Part shown: positions 8,329 through 47,724 of the stretch, piece by piece
Numbering within the stretch: the stretch's first letter is position 1
Layout of the letters: every line of letters begins with the position of its first letter
Origin: Caldifarciminota bacterium
Lineage (GTDB): Bacteria; Hydrothermota; Hydrothermia; Hydrothermales; JAJRUZ01
Assembly (NCBI GenBank): GCA_024277525.1
Contig: JAJRUZ010000039.1
Coordinates: 1-51,277 of the forward strand
Length of the DNA stretch: 51,277 nucleotides
Reading direction: 5' to 3'
The notes under the pieces: generated by a model
Seen by the model: only the letters and a program-made list of their open reading frames with translations
What the model was told of the DNA's origin: nothing
Databases searched by the model: none
Position numbers and translations under genes: made by a program

Positions 8329-9087
8329 ATGAACAGAAAAACATTGACCGAAAAAGAGATAATTGCAATTATTGAGAAAAGATTGCCAAAAATTATTGAA
8401 AAACATCCGGAGGTAAAAAGGAAAATAGAAGAAATACTTGAAAAAAAAGCGGCAACAAAGGATGATATAAAGGCGATATTGCTTGAACTTCAAAGACAGA
8501 GGGAGGAGGCAAATAAGAGATTTGAGATGCTTGAAAGGGAGAATGCCAAAAGATTTGAGGCAATGGAAAGGGAGAATGCCAAAAGATTTGAGGCTATTGA
8601 AAGAAGATTTGAAACAATGGAAAGAAGATTTGAGATTCTTGTGAAAGAGATGAGGGCGGGTTTTGAAGCCCTTGACAGAAAGATTGAGACAAGGATATCC
8701 GCGCTGGGTTCAAGATGGGGGATATACGCTGAGGATGCATTCAGAAAAACCTTTGAGGAGTTGCTTCCCGGATTGGGATATAAGGTAATAAAATGGAAAA
8801 AAATAGACGAAAAGGGAGTAATTTTTTCAAGACCAAGACCCGTTGAAATTGACATTCTTATAAAAAATAAAAAGAGAATAGCAATAGAGATAAAATCTTC
8901 ATTAACTATCGGGGAGCTCGAGATTTTTGAAAAGAGTGTGAAGTTTTATGAAAGGGAGGAGAGGGAAAAAATTACCGAAAAGATAGTTGTGACCCTGTTT
9001 CCTTATCCGGGTGTTGAGGAGTATGCAGGGGAATTGAAAATAAAGGTGATAAAGAGTGAAAGAGAAGCGGAAAATTATTTGAAATAA
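8329..9087 (+). CDS. Coiled-coil PD-(D/E)XK nuclease-like protein (DUF3782-type), paralogue 1
   Basis: 252 residues in three parts. Residues 1-50 form a helical head (TEKEIIAIIEKRLPKIIEKHPEVKRKI). About 52-120 is a coiled coil of 11- and 7-residue units built on RFE (AKRFEAMEREN, ERRFETM). About 125-250 is a PD-(D/E)XK-like domain: SALGSRWGIYAEDAFRK, then VEID and, after a hairpin, AIEIKSSL, giving the D...ExK pattern of restriction-type nucleases. Family members have no proven function that I know. Close paralogues lie at 11284 and 46867, a distant one at 30423. The promoter predicts a leaderless mRNA. Confidence 0.85.
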   Translation: MNRKTLTEKEIIAIIEKRLPKIIEKHPEVKRKIEEILEKKAATKDDIKAILLELQRQREEANKRFEMLERENAKRFEAMERENAKRFEAIERRFETMERRFEILVKEMRAGFEALDRKIETRISALGSRWGIYAEDAFRKTFEELLPGLGYKVIKWKKIDEKGVIFSRPRPVEIDILIKNKKRIAIEIKSSLTIGELEIFEKSVKFYEREEREKITEKIVVTLFPYPGVEEYAGELKIKVIKSEREAENYLK

Positions 9088-9289
9088 TTTTTTTTATAAT
9101 TTTTCACATTTTCGTAAAAGTGAAAGTTTAAGTAAAGTTTTTAGGTTTTTACTCTGTTAATTTGGTATTTCGTGATTGTTGTAATAATGAAATAAGGGCT
9201 TTATATCATTTTTGCTTCTGAGTTTTAATTTTTGACTTTATCTTCTTATGTTCTTATATCCGGGTTTTTGTCCTTTTGCGGTTTCAAAT

Positions 9290-9318
9290 TTGAATTCTCC
9301 TATTGTTGACTTTATAAT
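9290..9318 (+). promoter_or_regulatory. Promoter of the DUF433/PIN toxin-antitoxin pair
   Basis: TTGAAT (9290-9295), 17-base spacer, TATAAT (9313-9318), then 9 bases to the ATG at 9328. Leaderless layout again. Confidence 0.55.
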
Positions 9319-9327
9319 TAAAACATT

Positions 9328-9558
9328 ATGAAATTCAAACGGATTACAGTAAACCCTTCCGTATGTACGGGTAAACCGTGCATAAGAGGGCTACGTTTCC
9401 CTGTCTCAAGAATTTTGGGCTTACTTGCAGCGGGTGAGACAAAGGAGAACATTCTTAAAGCATATCCTTACCTTGAGCCGGGGGACATAGAAGAAGCTTT
9501 ACGTTTTGCCGCTTCTCTTGCAGAAGAAGAAACCATTGAATTTGTGAGCAAAGGGTGA
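9328..9558 (+). CDS. DUF433 antitoxin-like protein
   Basis: 76 residues with the DUF433 pattern: ITVNPSVCTGKPCIRGLRFPVSRILGLLAAGET, then ILKAYPYLEPGDIEEALRFAA. DUF433 proteins are small winged-helix or HTH proteins usually encoded just before a DUF5615 PIN-like protein and taken as antitoxins that also repress the operon. The next gene is exactly such a partner. The ATG lies 9 bases after a TATAAT box. Confidence 0.9.
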   Translation: MKFKRITVNPSVCTGKPCIRGLRFPVSRILGLLAAGETKENILKAYPYLEPGDIEEALRFAASLAEEETIEFVSKG

Positions 9559-9564
9559 AATTTT

Positions 9565-9936
9565 TTGGTGGATATGCCTGTTTCTCCCCGAATTGCTGAA
9601 TGGCTACGAGAGGAAGGGCATGATGCTATACATGCCTGGGAAGTGGGATTAGAAAGAGCAACTGATGAGAAAATCTTAAATTTTGCAATCGAAGAAAAAA
9701 GAGTGATAATAACAGCGGATTTGGATTATAGCCGTTTAATCGCTATTTCCTTTACAAAAGAACCCGGGATAATCCTTTTCAGAAAAGGAGATTACTCCGA
9801 AAAAGAATTAAAGGAAAGATTAAAACATGTATTAGAAATAATTCCGGAAAAAGAATTTTATTCTTCAATTACTGTTGTAGAGAAATTCAGAATCAGAAGA
9901 ACAAAGCTTCCCCTTCTCAAAAAAGATAGATATTAG
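9565..9936 (+). CDS. DUF5615 PIN-like toxin candidate
   Basis: 123 residues: PVSPRIAEWLREEGHDAIHA, then ATDEKILNFAIEEKRVIITADLDYSRL, the acidic PIN-like core (D in VDMP, D in TADLDY). Such proteins are predicted ribonucleases paired with DUF433. The open frame needs a TTG start at 9565. Family members usually begin MKFLVDMPLSP, and a GTG at 9555 overlapping the antitoxin stop would give MKFLVDMP if the T6 run at 9561-9566 had five Ts. Either the gene uses TTG or the run carries an extra base. Confidence 0.85.
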   Translation: MVDMPVSPRIAEWLREEGHDAIHAWEVGLERATDEKILNFAIEEKRVIITADLDYSRLIAISFTKEPGIILFRKGDYSEKELKERLKHVLEIIPEKEFYSSITVVEKFRIRRTKLPLLKKDRY

Positions 9937-10246
9937 TTAAAAAGATTTTGAGGAAGGGTCTTTAAAACGGATAAGCAATATTCGCCCCAATCGGTTGTTT
10001 AGAGCTGTTCGCAATATAATTTTGTGTAAAGTGAAGCATCGGAGAAAAGAGAAAATGAAAGAAGTTATATTTACTGTTTCTATTTTAAAAATTTTAATTT
10101 TGTCATTTTTACAATTGTAAAAGTGAGGAAGTGAGGTTGTGAAAAAAGAAGGGTTCTTCCTTCTCCAAAGGGAAAATTTCTTATTTCCCTATTTCGGGGT
10201 TTGACCCGTTATCCCCTCTCTATATAATGCTCTTTATAAAGTTTCT
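9937..10246. other. Intergenic stretch with hairpins and a stray promoter
   Basis: No convincing gene. It holds short hairpins (AGAAGG...CCTTCT near 10150 and GGGAAA...TTTCCC near 10170) and a plus-strand promoter at 10201-10228 pointing towards the antisense strand of the lipoprotein gene. Confidence 0.4.
10201..10228 (+). promoter_or_regulatory. Promoter-like sequence antisense to the lipoprotein gene
   Basis: TTGACC (10201-10206), 16-base spacer, TATAAT (10223-10228). No plus-strand gene follows; a transcript would run antisense through the gene at 10247-10645. Could be chance in AT-rich DNA. Confidence 0.35.
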
Positions 10247-10645
10247 TTACGGCGGTGAAGGGCCATACCATACTCCAATTGTATCTGCGGCAATGTTATC
10301 ATGATTATCATACGCAATAGCTATAATGTATACATACGATGTTAAATTCTCACGGTGAGAAGCAGTGAATGTAACTTCCCAAGGCTCGGAATAGTCGACA
10401 TAACTATTCCAACTATAGCCTCCATCATCGTCATAAAAAATCACTTTAAAAATACCACTTTCATCAGTAGCTTTTGCTTTTACCACGAATGACGTACCGT
10501 TGAAATTTTGACCGGGAGATGGAGGAATGATTTCTATTTTTGGCGGTGTAGTATCTACTTCTTCATGCTTAATAGGCTCTTTACACATTAAAAATATTAT
10601 ATGCACACTTAGTATTATTAAACTTTTACAACAACAGTCCTTCAT
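10247..10645 (-). CDS. Small lipoprotein with an Ig-like domain
   Basis: 132 residues. The N-terminus has a hydrophobic stretch ending in a lipobox-like IFLMC (Cys about residue 21), so it is probably lipidated and periplasmic or outer-membrane attached. From about residue 32 the TTPPKIEIIPPSPGQNF start, SFVVKAKATDESGIFKVIFY and YIIAIAYDNHDNIA are the strands of a bacterial Ig-like (Big-type) domain. A GGAGGAGG-rich site precedes the ATG. It stands alone; its binding partner is unknown. Confidence 0.75.
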   Translation of the reverse strand: MKDCCCKSLIILSVHIIFLMCKEPIKHEEVDTTPPKIEIIPPSPGQNFNGTSFVVKAKATDESGIFKVIFYDDDGGYSWNSYVDYSEPWEVTFTASHRENLTSYVYIIAIAYDNHDNIAADTIGVWYGPSPP

Positions 10646-10921
10646 TTTATGCCTCCTCCTACGTTAAAATTAGTCACGAAAACAACCTTTAGAGTCAGAG
10701 CCGGACATAAGGATATAACCGCTTTTTTATTTTTATCCATAAATTATACTCCTCCTGCCCCTGCGCATCTTCCCAGGGCGGGTTTTTCTCATTTCGGGCC
10801 GGTGCCGCCATACACGGATTTGAACCTTTTTATATCCCATCACCTTAAATATATGCAAATTTTGTGCCAGAAAAGAAATATACGAAAATTAAAGGATTTT
10901 TAAAGATATTTTTTTAAGGGT

Positions 10922-11025
10922 GTAACAAAAATGCTACTTTCAAAAACCGAAAATACAGGAATGCCAAGAAATATAAGGGATTTTTCGGTGTAACAAAAAT
11001 GTTATATGTGTAGCAAAAATGCTAC
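10922..11025. repeat. Three copies of a GTAGCAAAAATGCTAC-type palindrome
   Basis: Copies at 10922-10937 (GTAACAAAAATGCTAC), 10990-11005 (GTAACAAAAATGTTAT) and 11010-11025 (GTAGCAAAAATGCTAC). The third is a perfect 6-bp inverted repeat around AAAA. Copies two and three are 4 bases apart. Each is preceded by GT or GGT. They could be operators for a dimeric repressor or a small dispersed repeat. Confidence 0.6.
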
Positions 11026-11122
11026 TGTTAAAAATCTGGTTCCCTCGCCGTATGGATACTACATGATTCTGGCTTCTTAACCGTGCTTTTTCAATCCCCC
11101 TTCTCCAAGGGGAGTTTTAAAA

Positions 11123-11146
11123 TCGCGGTTGGGAAACCGCTCCTAC
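11123..11146 (-). repeat. REP-like element with GTAG head
   Basis: On the minus strand it reads GTAG, GAGCGGTTT, CCC, AACCGCGA; arms GCGGTT and AACCGC pair perfectly. The head and hairpin match the layout of REP elements and the copy at 107-130. Confidence 0.65.
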
Positions 11147-11161
11147 GAATTTGCTCATTTT

Positions 11162-11184
11162 CGCAGGCTAAAGCCTGCGGCTAC
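11162..11184 (-). repeat. Second REP-like palindrome with GTAG head
   Basis: On the minus strand: GTAG, CCGCAGGCTTT, AGCCTGCG; arms CGCAGGCT and AGCCTGCG pair over 8 bases. It has the same orientation as the element 16 bases away. Confidence 0.6.
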
Positions 11185-11283
11185 AGCTTTTCAATCCCTT
11201 TTAATCCCCCTCTCCGATAATTATAATTTTTTGGGATTCTGGGAAATAATTATAAGGGAAATTCCGGGATATTGTCAAGGATT

Positions 11284-12090
11284 TTATCTCTGCCTCAAAA
11301 GGTATTCCTTTGCGGATTCCCCGCTCTCTATAACCTTTATTTTTAATGATTTTGCATACTCCTTTACACCCGGATAGGGGAAAAGTGTAACCATTATCTT
11401 CTTATCCACCTTCTCCTTCTCAATCTTCTCATAAAACCTGATACTCCTTTCAAAAATTGTAACATCCGCACAGGTGAGGGAGGACTTTATCTCTATTGCT
11501 ATCCTCTTTTTGTTTTTTATTATTATATCAATCTCAACAGGACGGGGACGGAGGAAAATCTCACCCTTCTCATCCATCTTCCTCCATTTTATTACCTTAT
11601 ACCCGAGATCAGGCAAAATCTCCTCAAACCCCTTCCTGAACGCATCCTCTGCAGAATAACCCCATCTTGAACCCAGAGCATCTATCTTCCTGTCCAGCCT
11701 CATAAAACCTTCTTTCATTTCCTCAAATCTTCTGTTTATTTCCTCAAATCTTTTGTCCATTTTTTCAAACCTTCTGTTTATCTCCTCAAACCTTTTGTCC
11801 GTTTTCTCAAATCTTCTGTTTATTTCTTCAAACCTTCTGTTTATTTCCTCAAACCTCCTGTTTGATTCCTCGGTGTGTCTGTGAAAATCTTCCCTGAGCT
11901 TTATGAGCTCCTCCCTCTGCCTTGCAAGCTCCTGAAGTACCGCCTTTATGTCATCCTTTGTTGCGGATTTTTTTTCAAGGATTTGCTCTATTTTCCTCCT
12001 TACCTCCGGTCTTTTCTCTATTATTTCGGGAAGTTTTTTTTCTATAATCTGAATTACATCTTTTTCTGTCAGAATTTTTTCGGTTTTCAT
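11284..12090 (-). CDS. Coiled-coil PD-(D/E)XK nuclease-like protein (DUF3782-type), paralogue 2
   Basis: 268 residues with the same plan as the gene at 8329: head (TEKDVIQIIEKKLPEIIEKRPEVRRKI), coiled coil from about residue 55 to 135, and nuclease-like domain (SALGSRWGYSAEDAFRKGFEE is the family pattern; here DALGSRWGYSAEDAF). The catalytic pattern is VEID...AIEIKSSL. The coiled coil here is almost pure 7-residue units of RRFEEIN/KRFEKMD, eight in a row, encoded by 21-base near-repeats. The gene lies 18 bases after the response regulator on the same strand but has its own consensus promoter inside the end of that gene, so it need not belong to the operon. Confidence 0.85.
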   Translation of the reverse strand: MKTEKILTEKDVIQIIEKKLPEIIEKRPEVRRKIEQILEKKSATKDDIKAVLQELARQREELIKLREDFHRHTEESNRRFEEINRRFEEINRRFEKTDKRFEEINRRFEKMDKRFEEINRRFEEMKEGFMRLDRKIDALGSRWGYSAEDAFRKGFEEILPDLGYKVIKWRKMDEKGEIFLRPRPVEIDIIIKNKKRIAIEIKSSLTCADVTIFERSIRFYEKIEKEKVDKKIMVTLFPYPGVKEYAKSLKIKVIESGESAKEYLLRQR

Positions 12091-12099
12091 GATGTTTAT

Positions 12100-12128
12100 A
12101 TTATAAAGTCATTTTTTATCTTTTTCAA
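12100..12128 (-). promoter_or_regulatory. Promoter of paralogue 2, leaderless layout
   Basis: On the minus strand TTGAAA (12123-12128), 17-base spacer, TATAAT (12100-12105), then 9 bases to the ATG at 12090. The -35 box and spacer overlap the last codons of the response regulator. Confidence 0.65.
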
Positions 12129-13458
12129 AATTTATCTCCCTTAAAAGCCTCTGAAGATGGACGCGGTGAATCCCGAGTTTTTTCGCGGTGAGCGTTATGT
12201 TGCCCCCGCTTTTTTTGAGAACATCAAGGATATAATTCCTCCTGAAATCCTTTATCGCCTCTTTCAAAGGTTTTATTTCCGCATCCTTTTCCGCCGTATC
12301 CTGTCCTTCAATCACCATTTTTAATTCCTCACCCGTTATGATTCTTCCCTGCTGTTTGATTGCCACAAGCTTTTCAATTATATTTTTTAACTCCCTTATA
12401 TTCCCCGGGAAATCATAATTTAAAAGGAATTCAAGTGCGGATTTTGAAAATTCATAATAGGGTTTGTTGTTCTCCTCACAGAATTTCCTTAAATAATATG
12501 TTGCTATCGGTTCTATGTCCTCCCTTCTCTCCCTCAGAGGCGGGATATGAAGCCTCAATACATTCAATCTGTAATAGAGGTCTTTTCTGAAATTCCCTTT
12601 TTTAACCTTTTTTTCTATATCCTTATTCGTTGCAGAGATTATTCTTACATCCACCTTTACCCCTTTTTCCGAACCGAGCGGGAATATTTCCTTATTTTCT
12701 ATAACATCAAGGATTTTCGCCTGAAGCCCTTCCGGCATATCGCATATTTCATTGAGAAATAATGAGCCCTTATCCGCAAGTTCAAATTTACCTTTTTTAT
12801 CCCTGTATGCTCCTGTGAATGCACCCTTCCTGAAACCGAAGAGCTCGCTCTCAAGCAGTTCACCGGGTATTGACGCACAGTTTACATGCTGAAAGGGGAA
12901 ATTCCTTCTATTTCCTGTATAATGAAGGAGTCTTGCAACCACATCCTTCCCGACCCCTGTTTCCCCTGTTATGAGAACCGGAGAAGCGGATTTTGAGAAA
13001 ATCTCTATTTTCCGGAGAATCTCTTTATAGATACCCGATTTCCCTATGAAAGGTATCTCCCTTCTTATCTCCGATGCCAGTCTCTCTATGATTTCTTCCT
13101 TTTCAACCCTGTTTAATATGCTTTCCGCGACTATCCTTATTTTTTCTTTATTTAACGGTTTTTCAAGGAAATCGCAGGCACCGGTCTTCATCGCCCTGAC
13201 AATGAGTTCTGTTGTTCCGTAACCGGTAATCACACATACAGGGGTTTTGTCCCTCCCTGCTATTTTTTCAAGAAGTTTTATACCGTCACCATCAGGCAGT
13301 TTCACATCAAGGAAGATGAGGTCAAATTTTTTATTTTTTAATTTCTCCTCCGCCTCCCTGAGCGTTCCGGCAAATTCAGGTTCCGCAAAACCCTCAAATG
13401 CTTTAAGAAAAAGATATTTTATCTCATAATCGTCGTCAATTATAAAAATTTTCTTCAT
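12109..13458 (-). CDS. NtrC-family sigma-54 response regulator
   Basis: 449 residues: receiver (1-120, phospho-Asp in LIFLDVKLPDGDG), AAA+ sigma-54 activation domain (about 130-365) and a Fis-type HTH (about 400-445, NITLTAKKLGIHRVHLQRLL). Walker A is GETGVGKD, and the sigma-54-contacting GAFTGA loop is intact. Walker B reads LFLNEICDMP, with Asn (residue 236, codon AAT) where the family has the Mg-binding Asp of LFLDE. It overlaps the sensor kinase gene by 4 bases, giving a two-component pair. Targets would be sigma-54 promoters; none is obvious in the window. Confidence 0.92.
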   Translation of the reverse strand: MKKIFIIDDDYEIKYLFLKAFEGFAEPEFAGTLREAEEKLKNKKFDLIFLDVKLPDGDGIKLLEKIAGRDKTPVCVITGYGTTELIVRAMKTGACDFLEKPLNKEKIRIVAESILNRVEKEEIIERLASEIRREIPFIGKSGIYKEILRKIEIFSKSASPVLITGETGVGKDVVARLLHYTGNRRNFPFQHVNCASIPGELLESELFGFRKGAFTGAYRDKKGKFELADKGSLFLNEICDMPEGLQAKILDVIENKEIFPLGSEKGVKVDVRIISATNKDIEKKVKKGNFRKDLYYRLNVLRLHIPPLRERREDIEPIATYYLRKFCEENNKPYYEFSKSALEFLLNYDFPGNIRELKNIIEKLVAIKQQGRIITGEELKMVIEGQDTAEKDAEIKPLKEAIKDFRRNYILDVLKKSGGNITLTAKKLGIHRVHLQRLLREINFEKDKK

Positions 13459-15449
13459 AAGGGCAATTTTATCTTAAAGGTTGTCCCTTTACCGGGCTCT
13501 GATTCCACATCTATTTTACCTTTCAGCGATGTGATTATGCTCTTTACCGTATATAAGCCCAGCCCGAGATGCCCTTCCTTTGATGTGTAAAAGGGAGCAA
13601 AGATTTTCCCGATTTTCTCCTTTTCAATTCCTTCTCCTTCATCCTTTATAATTATCTCCACGGATTTTCTCCTTTTACGGGTTTCAATATATATTTCTCC
13701 CTTTTCCATTGATTCAAGTGCATTCTGAATTAAATTTTTCAACACGGTCTCCATCTTCTCCCTTGAAACCCTTATTTTACCGATCCTTTTATCAAGATTT
13801 TTCTTAAAGGAAACCTCACCGGGAGATATCTTACCGAACCTTTCAATAATTTCATCAATCAATTCATTGAGCTCTGTTTCCCCTTCTTTTAATCCCGTCA
13901 TTTTTATATGAGTATTTAAAAAGAAAATTATTTCCTCAATTTTTTTGCATTTTTTTATAACATTTTCATCCCCTGTTTTCAGTATAAAGGAGCTCAATTC
14001 ATTCATTAGATTTTTTATTTCATGGAAGGATTCGTAGAAAAGGGTTAAATCGGGTGATTGAGTTTTTTGCTTTCTTATAAGCATGCCCGTTTTTAAGCCG
14101 GAGTAGAATATCCCGAGTATTATCAGGATAATTGCAGGAATTAAAAAAAGCAGAAGATTTATTTTCTTTTTGAATCTGAATGAATAAATTATGAATTCCC
14201 TTTTTATTTTCCCCTTATAAAGAAGGACGGATTTTGAGTTCCGGTCGGTGAGGAAGTTAGAAAAGATGTTCCAGTCCGCAGGAGGGAGGAAATCACCAAT
14301 TTCTTCACCCGCAAGGAGTTTGAAATCCCTGTCATAAATCTCCAGTTTACCCGGTCTTGTGATCACTATCTCATCATCTCCGTCAAGGTCAAGGTCCTCT
14401 GCCTGAATGGAATGTATCCCTTTCCCCATTTCAAACTCTTTTAATGTATTAAGGTTTCCATCAAGAACCAGCAATCTGCCGGAAAATAAAAGCAGAAGGA
14501 ATTCTTTTTTGCCGTCATTATTTATATCAGCGGGCTCAAATTTTGAAATCCCCTCATAAAATTTCCTCTTTTTTATTATCTCACCGGTTTTGCCGTTGAT
14601 GAGGTATAAAAATCTCTCCCTTTTTTCCTTTACTCCTCCGCATTCCGCAACATATATATTTTTTACTCCTTCAGGACCCGGGTCTCCTATTATAAACCTT
14701 GCGGATGTGGAATAGGAGCCGATTGTATGATTAAAAAGCATTTCTCCTTTTAGATTGAAGACAAAGAGATAGGAGGAATAATCATCAAACCCGTTGAAAT
14801 CACTTCCGTTACAGGGTGCGAAGCTCCCGATTATTATCTCCGGAACCCTGTCTCCGTTTATATCCTCAACCTCCCTGTAAGCAGGCTGGGCACCGCTTAT
14901 GAATTTCCACAGGATTTCTCCTGTTTCCGCATCAATCACAAAGAATCCGCGGGGGTAAAGATCAAAGCCGGTTATTACAAATACAATTAAAAGACACCGG
15001 TTCTCACAATCCACAAGAAAGACCCCTTTCCTTGGGATATGCCCTATCCAGCCCTCGGGAGGGCACATATCCCTGACCTCTGTGATAAAATACCTCCATC
15101 TCACGGGGTTCCTTATTCTCTCTATCACAAGAAACAGACTGTCATTTTTCAGGTAAGAAAAGGCGATTTCCTTATCCTCTCCCCCGTTAAGATTTATCAT
15201 TGAGGAAAAGCGTGTTTCCGCGTCAGGGAAATTGATCTGCCTTATGTATTGACCCCTCTGCGTCTTTATATGATATGCGGTCATTTTACCTTCCGCGGGG
15301 TAGGAAAGCACAATCTCGGAGATGTGGTCATAATTATAATCAATAATCGCGGGCGGTTCATCCGAAAATCCCCTTAAAGAGGGGTGAATCTCAATTTTTG
15401 TATTGAAGAATATACCGGAAAATAGAATAAAAGGAAACATCACTGCCAT
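13455..15449 (-). CDS. Sensor histidine kinase with periplasmic FG-GAP-type sensor
   Basis: 664 residues. A hydrophobic N-terminal segment is followed by about 400 extracytoplasmic residues with several FG-GAP/VCBS calcium-loop motifs (DINGDRVPE, DINNDGKKE, DLDLDGDDE), suggesting a beta-propeller sensor. One membrane helix at about 432-455 (INLLLFLIPAIILIILGIFY) leads to the kinase: H-box FHEIKN with His476, N-box NLIQNALESM, G1 DEGEGI, F-box FAPFYTSK and G2 GLGLYTVK. All key residues are present. It overlaps the NtrC-type regulator gene, its likely partner. The signal is unknown; a calcium- or carbohydrate-bearing surface ligand is possible. Confidence 0.9.
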   Translation of the reverse strand: MAVMFPFILFSGIFFNTKIEIHPSLRGFSDEPPAIIDYNYDHISEIVLSYPAEGKMTAYHIKTQRGQYIRQINFPDAETRFSSMINLNGGEDKEIAFSYLKNDSLFLVIERIRNPVRWRYFITEVRDMCPPEGWIGHIPRKGVFLVDCENRCLLIVFVITGFDLYPRGFFVIDAETGEILWKFISGAQPAYREVEDINGDRVPEIIIGSFAPCNGSDFNGFDDYSSYLFVFNLKGEMLFNHTIGSYSTSARFIIGDPGPEGVKNIYVAECGGVKEKRERFLYLINGKTGEIIKKRKFYEGISKFEPADINNDGKKEFLLLLFSGRLLVLDGNLNTLKEFEMGKGIHSIQAEDLDLDGDDEIVITRPGKLEIYDRDFKLLAGEEIGDFLPPADWNIFSNFLTDRNSKSVLLYKGKIKREFIIYSFRFKKKINLLLFLIPAIILIILGIFYSGLKTGMLIRKQKTQSPDLTLFYESFHEIKNLMNELSSFILKTGDENVIKKCKKIEEIIFFLNTHIKMTGLKEGETELNELIDEIIERFGKISPGEVSFKKNLDKRIGKIRVSREKMETVLKNLIQNALESMEKGEIYIETRKRRKSVEIIIKDEGEGIEKEKIGKIFAPFYTSKEGHLGLGLYTVKSIITSLKGKIDVESEPGKGTTFKIKLPL

Positions 15450-15646
15450 TTCTTTTTGCTCTCAGGAGGAAAAATTTGCAGACCCTGAAGAGAGAAAAAA
15501 ATTCTCATGTTCTAATTCTAAAAATTTTAAAATAAAATTTTCAACTTGTTTCTGCAATTTTACAGACCGAAGGGTTGTATTTTAGATTCCTCAGGGTTAG
15601 AGCAGGGTCAATTCAAAAAGGCGGAAATATGAAATAAAAACTGCAT

Positions 15647-17047: not shown

Positions 17048-17068
17048 TTTTTATTTTAATATATATTA

Positions 17069-30387: not shown

Positions 30388-30416
30388 TTGACAATCCTGT
30401 ATTCAGATGTTAAAAT
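30388..30416 (+). promoter_or_regulatory. Promoter of the fourth coiled-coil paralogue
   Basis: TTGACA (30388-30393), 17-base spacer, TAAAAT (30411-30416), then 6 bases to the ATG at 30423. Leaderless layout. Confidence 0.65.
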
Positions 30417-30422
30417 TTAAAC

Positions 30423-31340
30423 ATGAAAACCCTTGAAGAAATAATAAAAGAACTTCCCGAAAATATAAGGCTTCCGATTTATGAAGCATTCCAAGTGTTT
30501 CAAAAGGACATTGTGCACAGGGACCTTTCGGAAATAAAAGAAGAAATCAAAAAGGTATGGGAGGCAATAAACAGTCTTACCGAAGCTCAAGTGAGAACAG
30601 AAGAAAGGGTGAATGAACTTGCGGAGGCACAGAAAAAGACAGAAGAAAGGATGAATGAGCTTGTGGAGGTTCAAAAGAAAACAGAATAAAGGGTGAGTAA
30701 GCTGGAAAAGGTGGTCAAGGAGCTTGCGGAAGCCCAAAAGAAGACCGAAGAAAGGGTAAATGAGCTTGCCGAGGCGCAGAGAAAAACAGAAGAGAGGGTA
30801 AATGAACTTGCCGAGGCGCAGAGAAAAACAGAAGAGAGGGTAACCAAACTGGAAAAGGTGGTCAAGGAGATTGCAGAGGCCCAAAGAGAGACCGAGAGGG
30901 AACTCAGAAAGCTTGCCGAGTCCCATTATAAACTCGTGGAAGAGCACAGGAAAACGAGACAAAAACTTGAAGGTCTTTCCGATGCTTTCGGATATACCCT
31001 TGAGGACAGGGCTATAAAGTCCCTTCCTGTTATTCTTTCAAAGGATTATAAAATAAAAGTTATAGGTAAACTCAAAAGGACATACCTGAAAGTAGGGAAA
31101 GAATATATAGAGGTTAACATCTATGGTAAAGCAAGAAAAGATGGTAAGGAATATGTAATAATAGGGGAGTCAAAGTCAAGGGTTTCAAAGAAAGAGGTTG
31201 ACAGGTTTATTTCAAAATGTGAAAAAATATCAAAGAAATCAATAAGAATCCTTATATCATATCTTTTTACTCCTCAGATTGAAGAATATGCAAAGGAAAA
31301 AGGGATTATACTCATACCTTCCTATGAGCTTTCCCTGTAA
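30423..31340 (+). pseudogene. Coiled-coil nuclease-like protein (distant paralogue) with an internal stop codon
   Basis: Reading one frame gives 305 residues with a TAA at codon 89 (30687-30689). The repeat KKTEERVNEL is coded AAA ACA GAA GAA AGG elsewhere and here AAA ACA GAA TAA AGG, so one G to T change made the stop. The head (LEEIIKELPENIRLPIYEAF) is followed by a long coiled coil of 14-residue units and a C-terminal PD-(D/E)XK-like domain with EVNIYGKAR and IIGESKSRVS. The ExK is kept; the Asp of related genes is Asn. A GTG at 30693 could restart translation of the second half (215 residues). Confidence 0.7.
30756..30839 (+). repeat. Two 42-base tandem repeats in the coiled-coil region
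   Basis: Units 30756-30797 and 30798-30839 differ at one base (GAG versus GAA). Each codes for a 14-residue VNELAEAQRKTEER unit. More diverged units flank them, so the array probably grew by slippage or unequal crossover. Confidence 0.8.
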
Positions 31341-38327: not shown

Positions 38328-38340
38328 AAACTTCTAAAAC

Positions 38341-38364: not shown

Positions 38365-38371
38365 TAACAAA

Positions 38372-38652: not shown

Positions 38653-38682
38653 TTGACCGAACTTATTAAAGAAGTGTAAAAT
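38653..38682 (+). promoter_or_regulatory. Promoter of the HicB-like gene
   Basis: TTGACC (38653-38658), 18-base spacer, TAAAAT (38677-38682), 5 bases to the ATG at 38688. Leaderless layout. Confidence 0.5.
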
Positions 38683-38687
38683 TAAGC

Positions 38688-38867
38688 ATGAAGTTTTATA
38701 ATCTTACTGTAATTATTTTTAAAGAAGGTAAATACTATGTCTCAAAATGTCCTGAACTGGAAGTAGTAAGCTGTGGTGATACACCTCGGAAAGCTCTGAA
38801 AAATCTAAAAGAAGCTGTTGAACTCTATATAGAGAATGCAAAAATATTGGGAATAATAAATTTTTAA
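38688..38867 (+). CDS. HicB-like antitoxin without HicA
   Basis: 59 residues: FYNLTVIIFKEGKYYVSKCP, then ELEVVSCGDTPRKALKNLKEAVELYIENA. This is the HicB partial RNase-H-like fold (YxVxCPELxVxSxGDTxEEAxxNLKEAVELYLE). HicA, the small mRNA interferase, normally lies beside it; no such frame is found on either side. It may regulate a distant HicA or be a relic. A MITE copy lies about 150 bases upstream. Confidence 0.85.
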   Translation: MKFYNLTVIIFKEGKYYVSKCPELEVVSCGDTPRKALKNLKEAVELYIENAKILGIINF

Positions 38868-38881
38868 ATATTTTATAAAAA

Positions 38882-39850: not shown

Positions 39851-40737
39851 ATATTATAATTCTAAGATTTTCCTCAGGCGGAGATTTAATTCTCATAACA
39901 GGAATTATAGATAAGCTTTTAAAAAAGAACTTAAATGTTACACTTGTTGTAAAAAAAAGATTTAAGGAAATCTTTGAAGGATTTAAAAACCTGAGAATAA
40001 TAGAGTTTGAAGAGCATGAAGAAATTTTAGGCAAAGAATATGATTATGCTTTTGACCTTCAGAAAAATTTGAGAAGTTTTTTTATGATGAGAAAAATAAA
40101 GGCAAAGAGAAAGTTTTTTGCAAATAAGAGAAGTATTAAAAGAAGGATACATCTTTATTTCAGATTTCCTTTAAGGGAAAAATCTTTTATAAAGATATTT
40201 GCAGAACCCTTTGAAAGAGTATTCCAGGAAAATTTTTATTTAAGACCTGTTTTAAAATCAGAAAAAGAATTTAAAGGACTTCCTGAAAAATACATTTTAA
40301 TTGCCCCATTCTCTTCAAAACCGAAAAAAGATCTTTCGCATAAAGTCTTAAAAAAAATATTGGAAAATGAAAGCAAAGATAAAATATGTATAATTGTAGG
40401 TGATAAAAAGAGTAAAGAAAAAAAATTGCCTTTAATTAATAAAAATATTATAGATATAAGGGGAGAAACAAGTTTGAGGGAACTTTTTTATGTAGTAAAA
40501 AAGTCTTCATATATAATTACCGTGGACTCAATGATTTCACATATAGCAAGTGCTTATGAAAAAGAAGGCTTTGTAATTTTCGGTCCAACTACTCCTTTAT
40601 ACGGTTTTTATCCTTACGGAGATAAATTAAAAGTAATTCACAAAAAAATTCCCTGTTCTCCCTGCTCTCTACATGGAGAGGGAATTTGTTTGTTTAATAA
40701 AAAATGTTATGAAATAAATTTCAATTTTAAAATTTAA
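39847..40737 (+). CDS. Glycosyltransferase family 9 (heptosyltransferase-like)
   Basis: 296 residues from a GTG overlapping the preceding stop. IIILRFSSGGDLILITGIID at the start, YDYAFDLQKNLRSFFM, and the donor site TVDSMISHIASAYEKEGFVIFGPTTPLYGFYPYG match GT9. The end CSPCSLHGEGICLFNKKCYE is the usual Cys-rich tail. Such enzymes add heptose or similar sugars to lipopolysaccharide core. Convergent with the barrel gene, overlapping it by 11 bases. Confidence 0.9.
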   Translation: MNIIILRFSSGGDLILITGIIDKLLKKNLNVTLVVKKRFKEIFEGFKNLRIIEFEEHEEILGKEYDYAFDLQKNLRSFFMMRKIKAKRKFFANKRSIKRRIHLYFRFPLREKSFIKIFAEPFERVFQENFYLRPVLKSEKEFKGLPEKYILIAPFSSKPKKDLSHKVLKKILENESKDKICIIVGDKKSKEKKLPLINKNIIDIRGETSLRELFYVVKKSSYIITVDSMISHIASAYEKEGFVIFGPTTPLYGFYPYGDKLKVIHKKIPCSPCSLHGEGICLFNKKCYEINFNFKI

Positions 40738-41611
40738 AAATACCTTTTAAAGTAAACCCGAATCTTGTTACATAATCATTTTTACCAGCTATTGAAAATC
40801 CATAGGGTAGGTACTCTTCGGTAACTGCAAAATCAAGACCCAAGCTTAAAGGAAAAGCAGGTAAAGAAATTCTTACATAAGGATAAATTGATATATGATT
40901 ACCATCAGAATCTTTCTCTTCTGTACCATTTATTTTAATTGCTGTTCTTATCTTATATAAAAAAGAAAGTCCTATGGTACCGAAAGGAAATTTATATCCT
41001 GCCTTCAGAATTAGACCAAAATGGTCTCCACAATCATATTTAATTTTCGTGGTATCACCAAAAGGATTCCATATGGTAGGAAGGGGAGATTCTTTTTCAA
41101 GTGTTAAAAAGTACATTATTCCTCCCTTGAGATCGATTACAGGATTCGGAAGATTTCCGCAGATTTTAACAAAGATCGCGTTTTGTCGATCCGAATTTCC
41201 AATCTTATCGTTTGCTAAGTCAAATTCAGGACCCAAATCCGCCATAAATCCTACAATACTCTTCAAAAAAGCAGCTTTCATTCCTATAAAAAAAGAAATA
41301 TTTTGAGGAGAAAAACCACTTGATAGATTTTCTTCATAGGTGGTTCCTAAGATTGTATAAGAATAATTAAATGAAGCATTCACAACTCTTAAATTAAGTC
41401 CCCCAAACATATCAAAGGCAGGCAGTTTATAGAAACTGTATATTCCACCAAGATCAAGTGTCAAAATAGAAGCTTTGCCATTTAAAAATAAGGTTGTATC
41501 TTTTCCATCTTCATTATACCATTTATCACTTGTACCATATCCTATTTTCATCCAAGCTTTTCCCCCTGCGAAAAGGGGAATTGCTATGAGCAAGGGTAGT
41601 ATTTTTTTCAT
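40727..41611 (-). CDS. Outer-membrane beta-barrel protein
   Basis: 294 residues with a signal peptide (KKILPLLIAIPLFAGG). The mature part alternates polar and hydrophobic residues in strands (FGLILKAGYKFPFGTIGLSFLY, PYVRISLPAFPLSLGLDFAV) and ends in a strand with terminal Phe (YVTRFGFTLKGIFKF), the BAM recognition signal. Specific substrate unknown. AGGAG lies before the ATG, and a T-arm-like hairpin lies about 23 bases further up. Confidence 0.85.
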   Translation of the reverse strand: MKKILPLLIAIPLFAGGKAWMKIGYGTSDKWYNEDGKDTTLFLNGKASILTLDLGGIYSFYKLPAFDMFGGLNLRVVNASFNYSYTILGTTYEENLSSGFSPQNISFFIGMKAAFLKSIVGFMADLGPEFDLANDKIGNSDRQNAIFVKICGNLPNPVIDLKGGIMYFLTLEKESPLPTIWNPFGDTTKIKYDCGDHFGLILKAGYKFPFGTIGLSFLYKIRTAIKINGTEEKDSDGNHISIYPYVRISLPAFPLSLGLDFAVTEEYLPYGFSIAGKNDYVTRFGFTLKGIFKF

Positions 41612-41633
41612 TTTTAACTCCTTTTAGCATTGG

Positions 41634-41648
41634 AGGGAATTGAACCCT
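41634..41648 (-). other. tRNA T-arm-like hairpin before the barrel gene
   Basis: On the minus strand AGGG TTCAATT CCCT, a 4-bp stem and T-loop-like 7-base loop, followed by CCAATGCT. No tRNA body precedes it. Confidence 0.4.
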
Positions 41649-41652
41649 TGAT

Positions 41653-42224
41653 TTACTCATTAACAGGTATTCTATATTTAATACCGAAAACCAAATACTG
41701 ATTTTTTATATCTCCGGTAAAAATATTATAATAAGAAAAGTTTAAGGCGATAAGGGAAATATAAAAACCGAAATTCAGTCCGAGTGCAAATTTTGCACCT
41801 GAAATTTTCTTCTCCTCTACTCTCACAGAATCAGGAGAAATCAATACTTCATTTTTTAAATGAGTTCTAACAAATGCAAAACCGAATCTTATCCCTGTAT
41901 AAGGAGAAAAGGTCTTTTTAAATCCCAGAACCGAATAAGTCGCGCCGATAAAAAAAGGAATATTTGAATAATTATATTTTACTTTTAAATTTACGGATTC
42001 GGTCTGTTTCGGCACAAAATAATTATATCCTGTTTCAAAATCAAATCCCAGGTAAGGATTGACACGGACTTTATAATTTATATCAAAAAATCCTATACCC
42101 GGATTTGAAACATCGGAAAAATCGGAAACAGGCAAAAGAAAAGAGGGTAAACCAAGTGTAATTTCGTGGACAGGATAATCTGCCAAAAGGGATAAAGATA
42201 AAAAATTAATAAGATTTTCTTCAT
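41653..42224 (-). pseudogene. Outer-membrane barrel gene with a frameshift in its signal peptide
   Basis: The long frame (from TTG at 42186, 177 residues) begins at LADYPVHEITLGLP, the end of a signal peptide. An ATG at 42224 opens MKKILLIF in another frame. Adding one base to the A6 run at 42200-42205 (T run on the coding strand) joins them as MKKILLIFLSLSLLADYP, a perfect signal peptide. The body is strand-rich (FAFVRTHLKNEVLI, FKYRIPVNE-like end) as in small barrels. The product as read would not be exported. Could be an assembly indel. Confidence 0.7.
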
Positions 42225-42273
42225 TTTTAAATTAAAAGAGAAAATAAAGAAAAAAATCAAATAAAAAAGAAAA

Positions 42274-42294
42274 GTTGGGTATATCCCGGAGGAT
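42274..42294 (-). other. 3' arm of the 16S processing stem
   Basis: This 21-base stretch is perfectly complementary to 43907-43927 on the other side of the 16S gene. The arms would form the long helix cut by RNase III to release pre-16S. Confidence 0.85.
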
Positions 42295-42305
42295 ATTGTT
42301 CCTTA

Positions 42306-43882
<1,577 letters not shown>

Positions 43883-43906
43883 AATTAATTTTCAACTCAA
43901 AGTTTC

Positions 43907-43927
43907 ATCCTCCGGGATATACCCAAC
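43907..43927 (-). other. 5' arm of the 16S processing stem
   Basis: Perfect 21-bp complement of 42274-42294. It lies about 25 bases before the mature 5' end. Both arms close around 16S alone. Confidence 0.85.
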
Positions 43928-43961
43928 CCGATTTTCAAATACCAAAATTTTTATCTATTAT

Positions 43962-43990
43962 ATTATACCATCCAAAAAAAAATTTGTCAA
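43962..43990 (-). promoter_or_regulatory. 16S rRNA promoter
   Basis: On the minus strand TTGACA (43985-43990), 17-base spacer, TATAAT (43962-43967): a perfect sigma-70 consensus. Transcription would start near 43955. The -35 box overlaps the stop codon of the DtxR gene. Confidence 0.8.
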
Positions 43991-44625
43991 GTCCTTTTAA
44001 CAAAAATTTTCTCTGCTATTTTTTCCTCCACCGAAAAAACACTCCCGTCCATCTCTATTAAAAAAACGGGTCTTCTTTTTTTAATTTTAACACAAACACC
44101 CGGAATTAATCCAAAAGATGCCATCTTATGCTTTATTCTTCTATCATCAATATTTATGGAAATTATCTTCGCACTCTCATTCTCCCTTAAATGATAAAGC
44201 GGAAGTAAAAAGGGCTTCAAATCCGTCTTCTGCTTTCCGCAACATTTTCCCCTGGGAATCGGCTTTCCGTGAGGACAAACCCTCGGATGACCGAACAATA
44301 TACAAATCCTCTCCGTAGCCTCCTCGGTCAAAATATGTTCCAGCCTGCAAGCAGCTTCATTTGAAAATCTGCTATCGGTTTCAATTATTTCCGAAAAAAG
44401 CCACTCAGCCAATCGCAACCTCCTTATAATCTCTGAACCGATATGCCTCCCCTGATCGGTTAAAACCCATCTTCCGTCTTTCTCCTCAGCATAACCTTTT
44501 TTTACAAGCTCCCTGTAATCCCTTTCATTTATGGAATACTTGTTTATGGGCGCAAGCTCCCTTTCATCCCAGCCCTCCTCCCTCAACCACAGGAGCTTGA
44601 TTGCTTCTTCAAGTCTTATATCCAT
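43987..44625 (-). CDS. DtxR/MntR-type metal repressor with C-terminal FeoA domain
   Basis: 212 residues. Winged helix (about 1-65, ELAPINKYSINERDYRELVKKGYAEEKDGRWVLTDQG), dimerisation/metal domain (EAACRLEHILTEEATERICILFGHPRVCPHGKPIP), then an FeoA/SH3-like domain (about 140-210, ESAKIISINIDDRRIKHKMASFGLIPGVCVKI). The protein probably senses Fe(II) and represses the feo operon. It lies directly after feoB and the zinc ribbon on the same strand, and no separate feoA gene is seen. Confidence 0.9.
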   Translation of the reverse strand: MDIRLEEAIKLLWLREEGWDERELAPINKYSINERDYRELVKKGYAEEKDGRWVLTDQGRHIGSEIIRRLRLAEWLFSEIIETDSRFSNEAACRLEHILTEEATERICILFGHPRVCPHGKPIPRGKCCGKQKTDLKPFLLPLYHLRENESAKIISINIDDRRIKHKMASFGLIPGVCVKIKKRRPVFLIEMDGSVFSVEEKIAEKIFVKRT

Positions 44626-44626
44626 T

Positions 44627-44845
44627 TTATTTTTTCAAAATTTTTTTAATTTTATTCCACAATTTCAAAAATAAATTTTCATAATCTTTCATCATTATAT
44701 TATCATACCCGCAATTCGGACATTTTGCAAAATTACAACCCTTTTTCAATTCAAAAACAGGACATTTTTCACACACCGGAGAATCATAATCCGGTTCAAA
44801 TTCAAATCCGCAAACCGCACATTTTATCTTATTTATACCGGCCAT
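44627..44845 (-). CDS. FeoB-associated zinc-ribbon protein
   Basis: 72 residues. CAVCGFEFEP, CEKCPVFELKKGCNFAKCPNCGY give three Cys pairs and an extra Cys, enough for two metal sites. A basic tail follows (LWNKIKKILKK). It overlaps feoB by 13 bases and ends 1 base before the DtxR gene. It is the kind of small Cys-rich FeoC-like partner found in feo operons; whether it binds zinc, iron or a cluster is not known. Confidence 0.8.
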   Translation of the reverse strand: MAGINKIKCAVCGFEFEPDYDSPVCEKCPVFELKKGCNFAKCPNCGYDNIMMKDYENLFLKLWNKIKKILKK

Positions 44846-46803
44846 TTTTCAAGTATAATCCTTATTATAAAGCCGATAAACACCGCATAAGGGATAATAA
44901 ATAAGGAAATATAAACTGCTGTTTTCAATCCCCTTTCTTTTATTATAATAAGGAAATTCGCAATACAGGGTATAAAGAGTGTAATTGTGACCATACTCAC
45001 AATCAATTGAGAAACATTCAAAAGACCCATTTCTTTTAAACGATAAAACCCGGCCGCACCGTAATCCCTTCTCAAAAACCCCATTATAAAGCCTATTGCC
45101 GCTTCTTTCGGAAGCCCGAGTATATTCTTAACAACGGGTTTGAAAAGGTCCTCCAACCGGGCAAGTATGTGCGTTTTATCCATAATAAAAAGAATAGCTG
45201 TTCCGAGTATAAAAATCGGAATTACTTCTTTTAAATACCATTCAAGACGAGCCATTGTTTTAAATAAAATGTTTTGAAAAGAAGGAACCCTTAGAGGAGG
45301 AATTTCCATAAGAAAGAAACTTTCTTTTCCTTTTATGATTTTTGAAGCAAGAAATCCTACAAGAAGAATATTAAAAGAAATCGCAAAAGCCCATATTAGA
45401 AATGCGGAAAAGGAAACACCGGACATCAATGCCATTATCACTCCCATTTGAGCAGAACAGGGAATTCCCAAAGCAAGCAAAAAGGTAACTATTATTTTTT
45501 CTTTTTTTGTCTCAAGGGTTCTTGTGGTAACCGTAGCCATTGTATCACATCCCAATCCGAGAAGCATGGGTAAGACCGCCCTACCCGAAAGCCCGATTTT
45601 TTTGAAAAAATTGTTAAGTAATGTAGCAAGTCTGGGAAAATATCCGGAATCTTCAAGAATTCCGAAGGCTATGAAAAATGTAATAATGACAGGAAAAATT
45701 ATTGCAAGACCGTATGTCAGAGCCATTGTAAAAACCCCGAATTCTCCCACAAAAAACTCCTTTATGACCGAGGGAAGGGGCAGTAAATTAAAAATTTTGA
45801 TTATAAAAGGATTTATAAATTTACCGAAAACTTTATTTTCCAAAAAATCAACAAATACTCCTGCACCCAATACACCGACAAATTCATACAAAAGGAAAAG
45901 CACAAATCCCAAAAAAATATAACCCCAGAAGGGATGAATCATAAATTTATCAAGAAATTCCGTGATTTTGTTTTTGTAAATTTTCTCCCTTTTTACAATA
46001 ACTCCATCCAAAATTTTCTGAACATTTTTATTTATATCGGAAATTAAAACAAATTCAATCGGTTCGGGTAAAATCTTTTCCAAGTCTTCCCTTATTTTCA
46101 AAATTCTTTTAAAATCTTTTTCTTTTAATTTATTTTTCAATCTTTCCTCTGAGATTTTTTCACCCGAAAGAAAGAGATGAAGAATACCCCTTTCCCTTTC
46201 AATCGGCTCTTTTATAATTTTTTTAATATCTTTAATTACCTTTTCTATTTTTTTGTCAAAAGAGAAATCAATTTCCGGGACAGAAGCCTTTTCAACGCTC
46301 ATAAAAAGTTCCCTTATTCCCCTTCCGTGAATTGCAACCGTCTTAATTACAGGGATACCGAGCAATGAACTCAATTTTTTCTCATCAATCTCAATACCCC
46401 TCATCTTTGCCTCATCCCACATATTTAATACCAACACCGTAGGAAAATTGAAGAGTTTTAACTCAAATAAAAGCAAAAATGCCCTCTTCAAATTCTTTGC
46501 ATCAGCAATTAAAACAACAACATCCGGGTCTTCCTCTAACAATATTGAAACCGTTACCTTCTCGTCTTCGGTTCTTGCAAGCAAACTTTGAACACCCGGA
46601 GAATCAATTACAAGCACATTTTCTCCCGAACCTTTTAAAAATCCCCTGTAAATTTCAACCGTTGTTCCGGGATAATTTGATACGGTTACATATTTTCCCG
46701 TTAAATGATTAAAAATTACGGATTTCCCCACATTCGGATTCCCGACAAGCACTATCTTTTTCTTGATTTTTTCGGTTTTCAAAGGTAAACCGTGATTATG
46801 CAT
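44833..46803 (-). CDS. feoB: Ferrous iron transporter FeoB
   Basis: 656 residues. Small GTPase domain first: G1 GNPNVGKS, G3 DSPGVQS, G4 LNMWDEA. Helical GDI-like domain at about 170-250, then about 8 membrane helices with two Gate-type domains (GLGCDTMATVTTRTLETKKEK with Cys, and RRDYGAAGFYRL). It imports Fe(II). The ATG sits 5 bases after a TATAAT box (leaderless). First gene of the feoB-zinc ribbon-DtxR/FeoA operon. Confidence 0.96.
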   Translation of the reverse strand: MHNHGLPLKTEKIKKKIVLVGNPNVGKSVIFNHLTGKYVTVSNYPGTTVEIYRGFLKGSGENVLVIDSPGVQSLLARTEDEKVTVSILLEEDPDVVVLIADAKNLKRAFLLLFELKLFNFPTVLVLNMWDEAKMRGIEIDEKKLSSLLGIPVIKTVAIHGRGIRELFMSVEKASVPEIDFSFDKKIEKVIKDIKKIIKEPIERERGILHLFLSGEKISEERLKNKLKEKDFKRILKIREDLEKILPEPIEFVLISDINKNVQKILDGVIVKREKIYKNKITEFLDKFMIHPFWGYIFLGFVLFLLYEFVGVLGAGVFVDFLENKVFGKFINPFIIKIFNLLPLPSVIKEFFVGEFGVFTMALTYGLAIIFPVIITFFIAFGILEDSGYFPRLATLLNNFFKKIGLSGRAVLPMLLGLGCDTMATVTTRTLETKKEKIIVTFLLALGIPCSAQMGVIMALMSGVSFSAFLIWAFAISFNILLVGFLASKIIKGKESFFLMEIPPLRVPSFQNILFKTMARLEWYLKEVIPIFILGTAILFIMDKTHILARLEDLFKPVVKNILGLPKEAAIGFIMGFLRRDYGAAGFYRLKEMGLLNVSQLIVSMVTITLFIPCIANFLIIIKERGLKTAVYISLFIIPYAVFIGFIIRIILEKWPV

Positions 46804-46808
46804 ATTTA

Positions 46809-46837
46809 ATTATAATTCAAAAATTTTACTAATTCAA
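46809..46837 (-). promoter_or_regulatory. feoB promoter, leaderless layout
   Basis: On the minus strand TTGAAT (46832-46837), 17-base spacer, TATAAT (46809-46814), 5 bases to the ATG. An inverted repeat that might be a DtxR operator was not clear. Confidence 0.6.
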
Positions 46838-46866
46838 AATTTATTCTTTTTTTAACTTCAGTTTTA

Positions 46867-47724
46867 TTATTTCAAATATCTTTCTGCTTCACTTTCGCTT
46901 TTTATAATTTTAACTTTGAGTCGTTTTGCATAACTTTCAACGCCGGGATAAGGGAAAAGGGTAATTATTATCTTTTTATCTATTTTTTCCTTTTCTTCCT
47001 CTTCGTAAAACCTTACGCTTCTTTCAAAAACTTCCAATTCTCCGAGAGTTAAAGAAGACTTTATCTCTATTGCTATTTTCTTTTTATCTCTTATTAATAT
47101 ATCAATTTCCGCGGGTCTTGGTCTTAAGAATACCTTGCATGCTTTATCCATCTTTCTCCATTTTATTACTTTATAACCGAGTTCGGGTAAAAGTTCTTCA
47201 AACCCCTTTCTGAATGTATCCTCCGCGAAAATTCCCCATCTTGAGCCGAGTGCCGAAATTCGTGAATCAATCTTTTTATCAAGCATTTCAAATCCTTTCT
47301 TCATTTCATTTATAAGTGCTTCAAATCTTTTATCAATAGACTCAAATCTCCTTTCAATCGTCTCAAATCTTTTTGCATTTGCCCGCTCCATCGCTTCAAA
47401 TCTTTTATCAATTGCCTCAAATCTTCTTTCGATTGCCTCAAATCTTTTCGCATTCTCCCTCTCAAGCATTTCAAACCTCTTTTCAATTGCCTCAAATCTC
47501 TTTGCGTTCTCCCTCTCAAGCATTTCAAACCTCTTGTTTGTTTCTTCCCTCTGTTTTTGAAGTTCAAGAAGTATTGCTTTTATATCATCCTTGGTTGCTG
47601 TTTTCTTTTCAATTATTTCTTCTATTTTCCTTTTAACCTCAGGGTGCGTTTCAATAATTTCGGGAAGTCTTTTTTCAATTATTTCAATTATTTCATCTTC
47701 GGTTAAAACCTTCTTTGTTTTCAT
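46867..47724 (-). CDS. Coiled-coil PD-(D/E)XK nuclease-like protein (DUF3782-type), paralogue 3
   Basis: 285 residues, the longest of the three close paralogues. Head TEDEIIEIIEKRLPEIIETH and EVKRKIEEIIEKKTATKDDI; coiled coil at about 52-150 with mixed 11- and 7-residue RFE units (AKRFEAIE, KRFEMLEREN); nuclease-like domain with SALGSRWGIFAEDTFRKGFE, AEID and AIEIKSSL. Compared with the gene at 8329 only the coiled coil differs much in length; the head and nuclease parts are close. Own promoter, not part of the feo operon. Confidence 0.85.
   Translation of the reverse strand: MKTKKVLTEDEIIEIIEKRLPEIIETHPEVKRKIEEIIEKKTATKDDIKAILLELQKQREETNKRFEMLERENAKRFEAIEKRFEMLERENAKRFEAIERRFEAIDKRFEAMERANAKRFETIERRFESIDKRFEALINEMKKGFEMLDKKIDSRISALGSRWGIFAEDTFRKGFEELLPELGYKVIKWRKMDKACKVFLRPRPAEIDILIRDKKKIAIEIKSSLTLGELEVFERSVRFYEEEEKEKIDKKIIITLFPYPGVESYAKRLKVKIIKSESEAERYLK

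What the first reader, a model, noticed from the sequence alone, without database searches (positions are those of the whole stretch)
8329..47724. Four-member family of coiled-coil PD-(D/E)XK-like proteins scattered in 40 kb
Genes at 8329(+), 11284(-), 30423(+) and 46867(-) share a helical head, a coiled coil of variable length and a C-terminal D...ExK domain. The three close ones keep VEID/AEID and AIEIKSSL almost unchanged while the coiled coil is remodelled (11-mers, 7-mers or mixed). No modification enzyme or shared partner lies beside them. Variable spacer length with constant ends suggests a ruler-like or self-assembling nuclease, perhaps in defence or DNA repair. Function is inference.
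Basis: partly seen in the sequence, partly recalled or inferred. Interest (0 to 1): 0.7.

Follow-up and report, generated by a model that had tools for sequence, protein, structure and literature searches.

The report
Coiled-coil nuclease family with swappable tips
A probably heat-loving bacterium carries about a dozen stand-alone copies of a probable DNA-cutting enzyme mounted on a rod-shaped stalk; the enzyme family is known by sequence, but the stalk changes length in place between sister species and the cutting tips are exchanged between stalks, which argues against the stalk being a precise ruler.

Summary
Three genes (8329+, 11284-, 46867-) are clear members of a described family: Pfam DUF3782 stalk plus PDDEXK_10 (DUF1626/COG5493) nuclease domain. 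The fourth (30423+) is a related second type: its C-terminal domain is not PDDEXK_10, has Asn where the motif-II Asp should be, and the gene is cut by an in-frame TAG at codon 89. The genome holds 7 type-A and 5 type-B copies, with no shared partner. Predicted structures of both tips are PD-(D/E)XK folds. New here: (1) stalk length changes in place between sister species (exactly 5 heptads, 105 bp, at a syntenic locus) while the ends stay under purifying selection, which argues against a ruler; (2) tips are exchanged: one relative carries A and B tips on the same head and stalk, and the window genome holds a clear chimera; (3) nearly every copy has its own promoter with the -10 box a few nt before ATG: solitary, probably leaderless units. 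Trimer-type stalk signatures suggest three tips on one rod. Most likely function: a self-assembling orphan nuclease in defence or genome conflict, working like Rpn proteins; function is inferred. Known family; new variation.

The parts
8329..9087 (+). P0001, type-A coiled-coil PD-(D/E)XK protein, 252 aa (head 8329-8502; beta-layer motif AATKDD 8449-8466; stalk about 8467-8670; tip 8707-9084 with E135, E173/D175, E187/K189)
8316..8321 (+). TATAAT -10 box ending 7 nt before the P0001 ATG (probable leaderless mRNA)
11284..12090 (-). P0002, type-A, 268 aa, stalk mainly heptads
12100..12105 (-). TATAAT -10 box 9 nt before the P0002 ATG
30423..31340 (+). type-B relative: head + stalk + PD-(D/E)XK-like tip with motif II Asn; split by TAG at 30687-30689 into ORFs 30423-30689 and 30693-31340
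30388..30416 (+). TTGACA - 17 nt - TAAAAT promoter, -10 box ending 6 nt before the type-B ATG
46867..47724 (-). P0004, type-A, 285 aa, stalk of mixed 11- and 7-mers with six R-h-x-x-h-E motifs
47731..47736 (-). TATAAT -10 box 6 nt before the P0004 ATG

Best explanation
Each gene is a solitary, self-promoted unit encoding a self-assembling nuclease of the DUF3782-PDDEXK_10 family. The N-terminal head, which contains a beta-layer motif typical of trimeric alpha/beta coiled coils, and the repeat stalk bring several (probably three) chains together in parallel, so that several metal-dependent PD-(D/E)XK domains sit at the C-terminal end. Stalk length is tolerated over a wide range and changes by whole repeat units; head and tip are constrained. 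The stalk also serves as a recombination hinge through which tips (A1, A2, B) are exchanged. The patchy distribution, copy-number turnover, decay of copies and lack of partners fit a role in defence or genome conflict, working like Rpn proteins, where the number of helical repeats sets which chains pair. Shown: family, predicted fold, motif conservation, purifying selection, in-place stalk change, tip exchange, promoter layout. Inferred: oligomer number, catalysis, target, defence role.
For: Family: PF12644+PF07788 over cut-off in all three. Fold: AlphaFold2 models; Foldseek matches EndoMS/NucS, Can2, MspJI. Catalytic residues E, D, E-x-K invariant in type A from Odinarchaeota, Poribacteria, a gammaproteobacterial symbiont and delta/Myxococcota records. 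Selection: dN/dS 0.02 (head) and 0.08 (tip) between syntenic orthologues; 0.05-0.16 between paralogues where calculable. In-place stalk change: G003:C12 vs G001:C1 105 bp = 5 heptads; G003:C14 vs G001:C4 147 bp and G003:C9 vs G001:C11 54 bp. Tip exchange: in G039 A and B tips sit on heads and stalks that match at about 70-90% DNA identity, with no DNA match in the tip; G000:C79 is a chimera, nt 7-219 matching P0002 at 79% and nt 421-965 matching G003 A2 copies at 75-78%, with incongruent head and tip trees. Trimer signs: ATKDD motif vs the eLife 2016 consensus; R-h-x-x-h-E 4 and 6 times in P0001 and P0004 vs about 0.2-0.3 in shuffles. Turnover: 6 of 147 genomes of the phylum, up to 7 copies. 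Analogy: Rpn.
Against: No defence-system model matches beyond coiled-coil noise, and no consistent defence neighbourhood was found. P0002 and several relatives lack the R-h-x-x-h-E motif, so a trimer is not proven; the beta-layer consensus wants an aliphatic first residue and P0002/P0004 have Ser/Thr there. Fold-search TM-scores are only about 0.4-0.6. No intragenic antitoxin like RpnS was demonstrated; the Met just before the tip is conserved only among close relatives. No type-A homologue was found in phage, plasmid or viral collections.
Confidence: 0.42

Rival explanations
1. Housekeeping DNA repair or recombination nuclease (EndoMS/NucS-, Hjc- or RmuC-like), with the stalk holding several nuclease domains on branched or damaged DNA.
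For: Best structural matches are EndoMS/NucS, a repair endonuclease; type A has the Hjc-like set E, D, E-x-K; RmuC also joins a coiled coil to a PD-(D/E)XK-like domain (own knowledge).
Against: Found in only 6 of 147 genomes of the phylum, 2-7 copies in same-family genomes, several copies decayed; the RmuC Pfam model reaches only 16.3 of 26 bits and only in the coil.
Confidence: 0.2
2. Selfish or mobile-element-derived genes: the nuclease promotes its own spread as a solitary gene.
For: Dispersed copies, head/tip recombination, copy C79 beside an IS110 transposase, two G003 copies at synteny breakpoints relative to G001, dispersed repeats in flanking intergenic DNA.
Against: Flank similarity between paralogues covers only about 30-65 bp of promoter region and is essentially absent after the stop codon, so no terminal repeats; three loci are syntenic between sister species, i.e. 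stably inherited; purifying selection.
Confidence: 0.13
3. The stalk is a molecular ruler: its length sets the distance between two cut or binding sites.
For: Constant ends with variable spacer.
Against: Orthologues at the same locus in sister species differ by 35 residues (roughly 5 nm of helix) with unchanged ends; stalks of intact copies range from about 33 to 193 residues.
Confidence: 0.05
4. The tips are no longer nucleases but DNA- or protein-binding platforms; this may hold at least for type B.
For: Motif II Asp is Asn in all aligned type-B tips; the 2007 paper notes that the motif III Lys is often Thr in DUF1626.
Against: Type A keeps E, D, E and K invariant from Odinarchaeota to bacteria under strong purifying selection; E-x-K is still kept in nearly all type-B tips.
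Confidence: 0.15

Closest known systems
DUF3782-PDDEXK_10 family (PF12644 + PF07788; DUF1626; COG5493), PMC1913061 and PMC4786415
   Same: Domain order, invariant active-site motif, coiled-coil stalk, and the ATK beta-layer motif described for the crenarchaeal members
   Different: These are bacterial members that carry the beta-layer motif, which the 2016 paper said bacterial nuclease members lacked; in-place stalk change and tip exchange are not described in the papers I could read
Rpn (YhgA-like, recombination-promoting nuclease), PMC10327210, PMC5350276
   Same: Orphan PD-(D/E)XK genes, variable copy number, a helical oligomerisation region whose repeat number varies between strains, patchy horizontal distribution
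   Different: No Pfam similarity; in Rpn the variable helix is C-terminal and also made as a separate antitoxin; here the stalk is N-terminal and no internal product is shown
EndoMS/NucS repair endonuclease
   Same: Among the closest solved folds for both tips
   Different: Sequence identity 13-16%, no stalk, different architecture
Thermosinus Tcar0761 (stalk without nuclease), PMC4786415
   Same: MATKDD-type beta-layer coiled coil, solved as a trimer
   Different: No nuclease tip; 14 consecutive nonads versus a single motif here

Membership tests
DUF3782-PDDEXK_10 (type A) | Both Pfam models above curated cut-off | tested here: met
   PF12644 58-75 bits (cut-off 24.4), PF07788 47-58 bits (cut-off 21.2) for P0001, P0002, P0004
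[quoted passage not shown]
   predicted model and fold search
DUF3782-PDDEXK_10 (type A) | Conserved motif I E, motif II D, motif III E-x-K | tested here: met
DUF3782-PDDEXK_10 (type A) | N-terminal coiled coil with beta-layer motif [aliphatic]-A-T-K-[polar]-[DE] | tested here: met
   first position is Ala in P0001 but Ser/Thr in P0002/P0004
Trimeric alpha/beta coiled coil | Three parallel chains | not testable with these tools
DUF3782-PDDEXK_10 (type B, gene at 30423) | PF07788 match | tested here: not met
PD-(D/E)XK superfamily (type B) | Fold | tested here: met
PD-(D/E)XK superfamily (type B) | Acidic residue at motif II | tested here: not met
   Asn invariant in 13 rows
Rpn / YhgA-like | Sequence membership in the Rpn Pfam family | tested here: not met
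   no such family among the hits shown for P0001 and P0004
Rpn / YhgA-like | Separately translated antitoxin from the variable region | tested here: inconclusive
   Met before the tip nearly invariant among close relatives but absent in L027-L029; no translation data
RmuC | PF02646 above cut-off | tested here: not met
   16.3 bits vs 26, coil only
Restriction-modification | Methylase or specificity partner next to the nuclease | tested here: not met
   no shared neighbour
Insertion sequence | Terminal repeats bounding each copy | tested here: not met

The most novel reading that the evidence does not exclude
The stalks are a recombining scaffold on which active (A) and motif-II-altered (B) nuclease tips are mounted; in genomes such as G039, where A and B tips share nearly the same head and stalk, the two co-assemble, with the B tip restraining or aiming the A tip, and stalk length and register deciding who pairs with whom.
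Probability: 0.1. Interest if true: 0.8.

Novelty: new variant of a known kind. Interest (0 to 1): 0.45.

Why it matters
DUF3782-PDDEXK_10 proteins occur in archaea and bacteria, yet I found no reported function in the papers I could search. The sister-species pairs here are natural experiments showing that stalk length is free while head and tip are not, and the tip exchange shows that the head and stalk work with different nuclease domains. Both give direct, cheap tests: does adding heptads change self-pairing or activity, and do A and B tips co-assemble?

Tried and rejected
Ruler idea: rejected by in-place stalk change. Recoding of TAG in the fourth gene: judged unlikely, because the sister copies are intact and TAG ends 2 of 38 window genes; a nonsense mutation is simpler. 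Phage or plasmid gene: no hits in phages, plasmids or viral contigs for type A and no PHROG match; one viral contig carries a type-B tip. Shared partner: clustering of neighbours found none beyond synteny; nucleotidyltransferases recur near a few copies but not consistently. Insertion sequence: no shared ends. The first genome-contig scan with a single protein found nothing; the alignment found seven loci. PDB search by sequence gave only coiled-coil or insignificant hits. Literature by Pfam accession found only the 2007 paper.

Full report
What is there. The window is a whole contig (C29) of a 2.34-Mb genome in 102 contigs. It carries a bacterial 16S rRNA gene (42308-43879) and a bacterial ribosomal-protein cluster. 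The three genes at 8329(+), 11284(-) and 46867(-) encode proteins of 252, 268 and 285 aa that match DUF3782 and PDDEXK_10 well above cut-off. This is the family predicted as PD-(D/E)XK in 2007 (PMC1913061) and whose stalk was discussed in 2016 (PMC4786415). Genome-wide there are seven type-A copies.

The fourth gene. The frame from 30423 is stopped by TAG at codon 89. Its C-terminal domain is not PDDEXK_10 but belongs to a second family with five copies in this genome and further copies in ten of the relatives searched. Type-B tips align to type-A tips by profile comparison (96.5%, E 8e-10) and are predicted to have the same fold, but the motif-II Asp is Asn in all 13 aligned rows. It is therefore a relative, possibly without catalysis, and this copy is probably broken or split.

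Fold and active site. The type-A tip model (pLDDT 80, pTM 0.72) has the order helix, three strands, helix, strand. The best PDB matches are EndoMS/NucS; Can2, Bax1 and MspJI follow among weaker unrelated ones. In ten divergent sequences, including Odinarchaeota, Poribacteria and a gammaproteobacterial symbiont, the E of R-W-G-x-x-x-E, the D of E-x-D and E-x-K are invariant, the E of E-x-D nearly so.

The stalk. P0001 and P0004 carry four and six R-h-x-x-h-E motifs, against 0.2-0.3 in shuffled coils; this is described as a trimerisation motif (PMC6173795). All type-A heads of this genome carry ATKDD, the beta-layer core that forms trimers in solved constructs. The 2016 paper states that bacterial nuclease members lacked such periodicities, so these bacterial proteins are an exception. 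A trimer is likely but unproven; P0002 lacks the R-h-x-x-h-E motif.

Stalk length changes in place. In two sister genomes (G001, G003) three type-A loci are syntenic. At one, head and tip are nearly identical while the stalk differs by exactly 105 bp, five heptads; dN/dS is 0.02 in the head and 0.08 in the tip. At the two others the stalks differ by 147 and 54 bp, and the G001 copies have acquired stop codons in the tip. Paralogue dN/dS, where calculable, is 0.05-0.16. A ruler should hold its length at an orthologous locus; this one does not.

Tips are exchanged. In G039 similar heads and stalks (about 70-90% DNA identity in the matching stretches) carry either A or B tips, with no DNA match in the tip; a Poribacteria protein (L031) also joins a B-like head to an A tip, judged by eye. 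In the window's genome the copy on C79 has a head like its sister copies (nt 7-219 79% identical to P0002) and a tip like the A2 tips of G003/G001 (nt 421-965, 75-78%). Head and tip trees disagree accordingly (head with G000 copies, 100/99; tip with A2, 95/96). Gene conversion of heads would look similar; either way the switch lies in the stalk.

Solitary units. Of 18 type-A copies examined, 14 have TATAAT and two TACAAT 5-9 nt before the ATG, and two a weaker match; B-headed copies mostly have TAAAAT 3-10 nt before it; only 7 of 62 other genes at the copy-bearing loci have a perfect TATAAT 4-12 nt upstream (starts of those other genes were called mechanically, so the contrast is approximate). 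The mRNAs are thus probably leaderless. Paralogues share only this promoter stretch upstream and almost nothing downstream. No neighbour is shared except by synteny.

Distribution. Type A occurs in 6 of 147 genomes of the phylum, with 2-7 copies in each of the four same-family genomes, and in scattered records elsewhere; none were found in phages, plasmids or viral contigs.

Function. Family and fold are well supported. Oligomerisation is likely. Catalysis is expected for type A. The role is inferred: the closest behavioural analogue is Rpn, orphan PD-(D/E)XK proteins whose helical repeat number varies between strains, determines which chains interact, and which act against phages (PMC10327210). 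Membership in Rpn fails by sequence. Repair or recombination cannot be excluded, since the best structural matches are EndoMS/NucS.

Noticed in passing
9328-9936 (+): A DUF433 gene followed by a DUF5615 (PIN-like) gene, a probable toxin-antitoxin pair, directly after P0001; its promoter has the same TTTATAAT-near-ATG layout.
   Followed up: partly
L036 1899-5150 (G000:C45): Topoisomerase plus helicase protein of 1083 aa, consistent with reverse gyrase, directly upstream of a type-A copy; suggests a hyperthermophile.
   Followed up: partly
L033 3-1046 (G000:C79): IS110-family transposase next to the chimeric type-A copy.
   Followed up: no
window 10177-10221, 11087-11155, 11213-11279: Intergenic stretches near P0002 that recur in other contigs of the genome; in G001/G003 the intergenic DNA near type-A copies is a mosaic of dispersed repeats.
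   Followed up: partly
L179 7456-8473; L177 1880-2335; L027, L028, L051: A HepT/nucleotidyltransferase pair and DUF2204/DUF6036-type nucleotidyltransferases recur within a few kb of some copies; the HEPN survey PMC3710099 also mentions DUF1626 in operons with such genes.
   Followed up: partly
L125 1-603: A viral contig (IMGVR_UViG_3300002510_000021) has a type-B tip at its left end beside phage-like genes.
   Followed up: no
G002:C10 and G002:C1 (L103, L046): Decayed type-B and type-A copies with frameshifts and stops, part of the birth-and-death pattern.
   Followed up: partly
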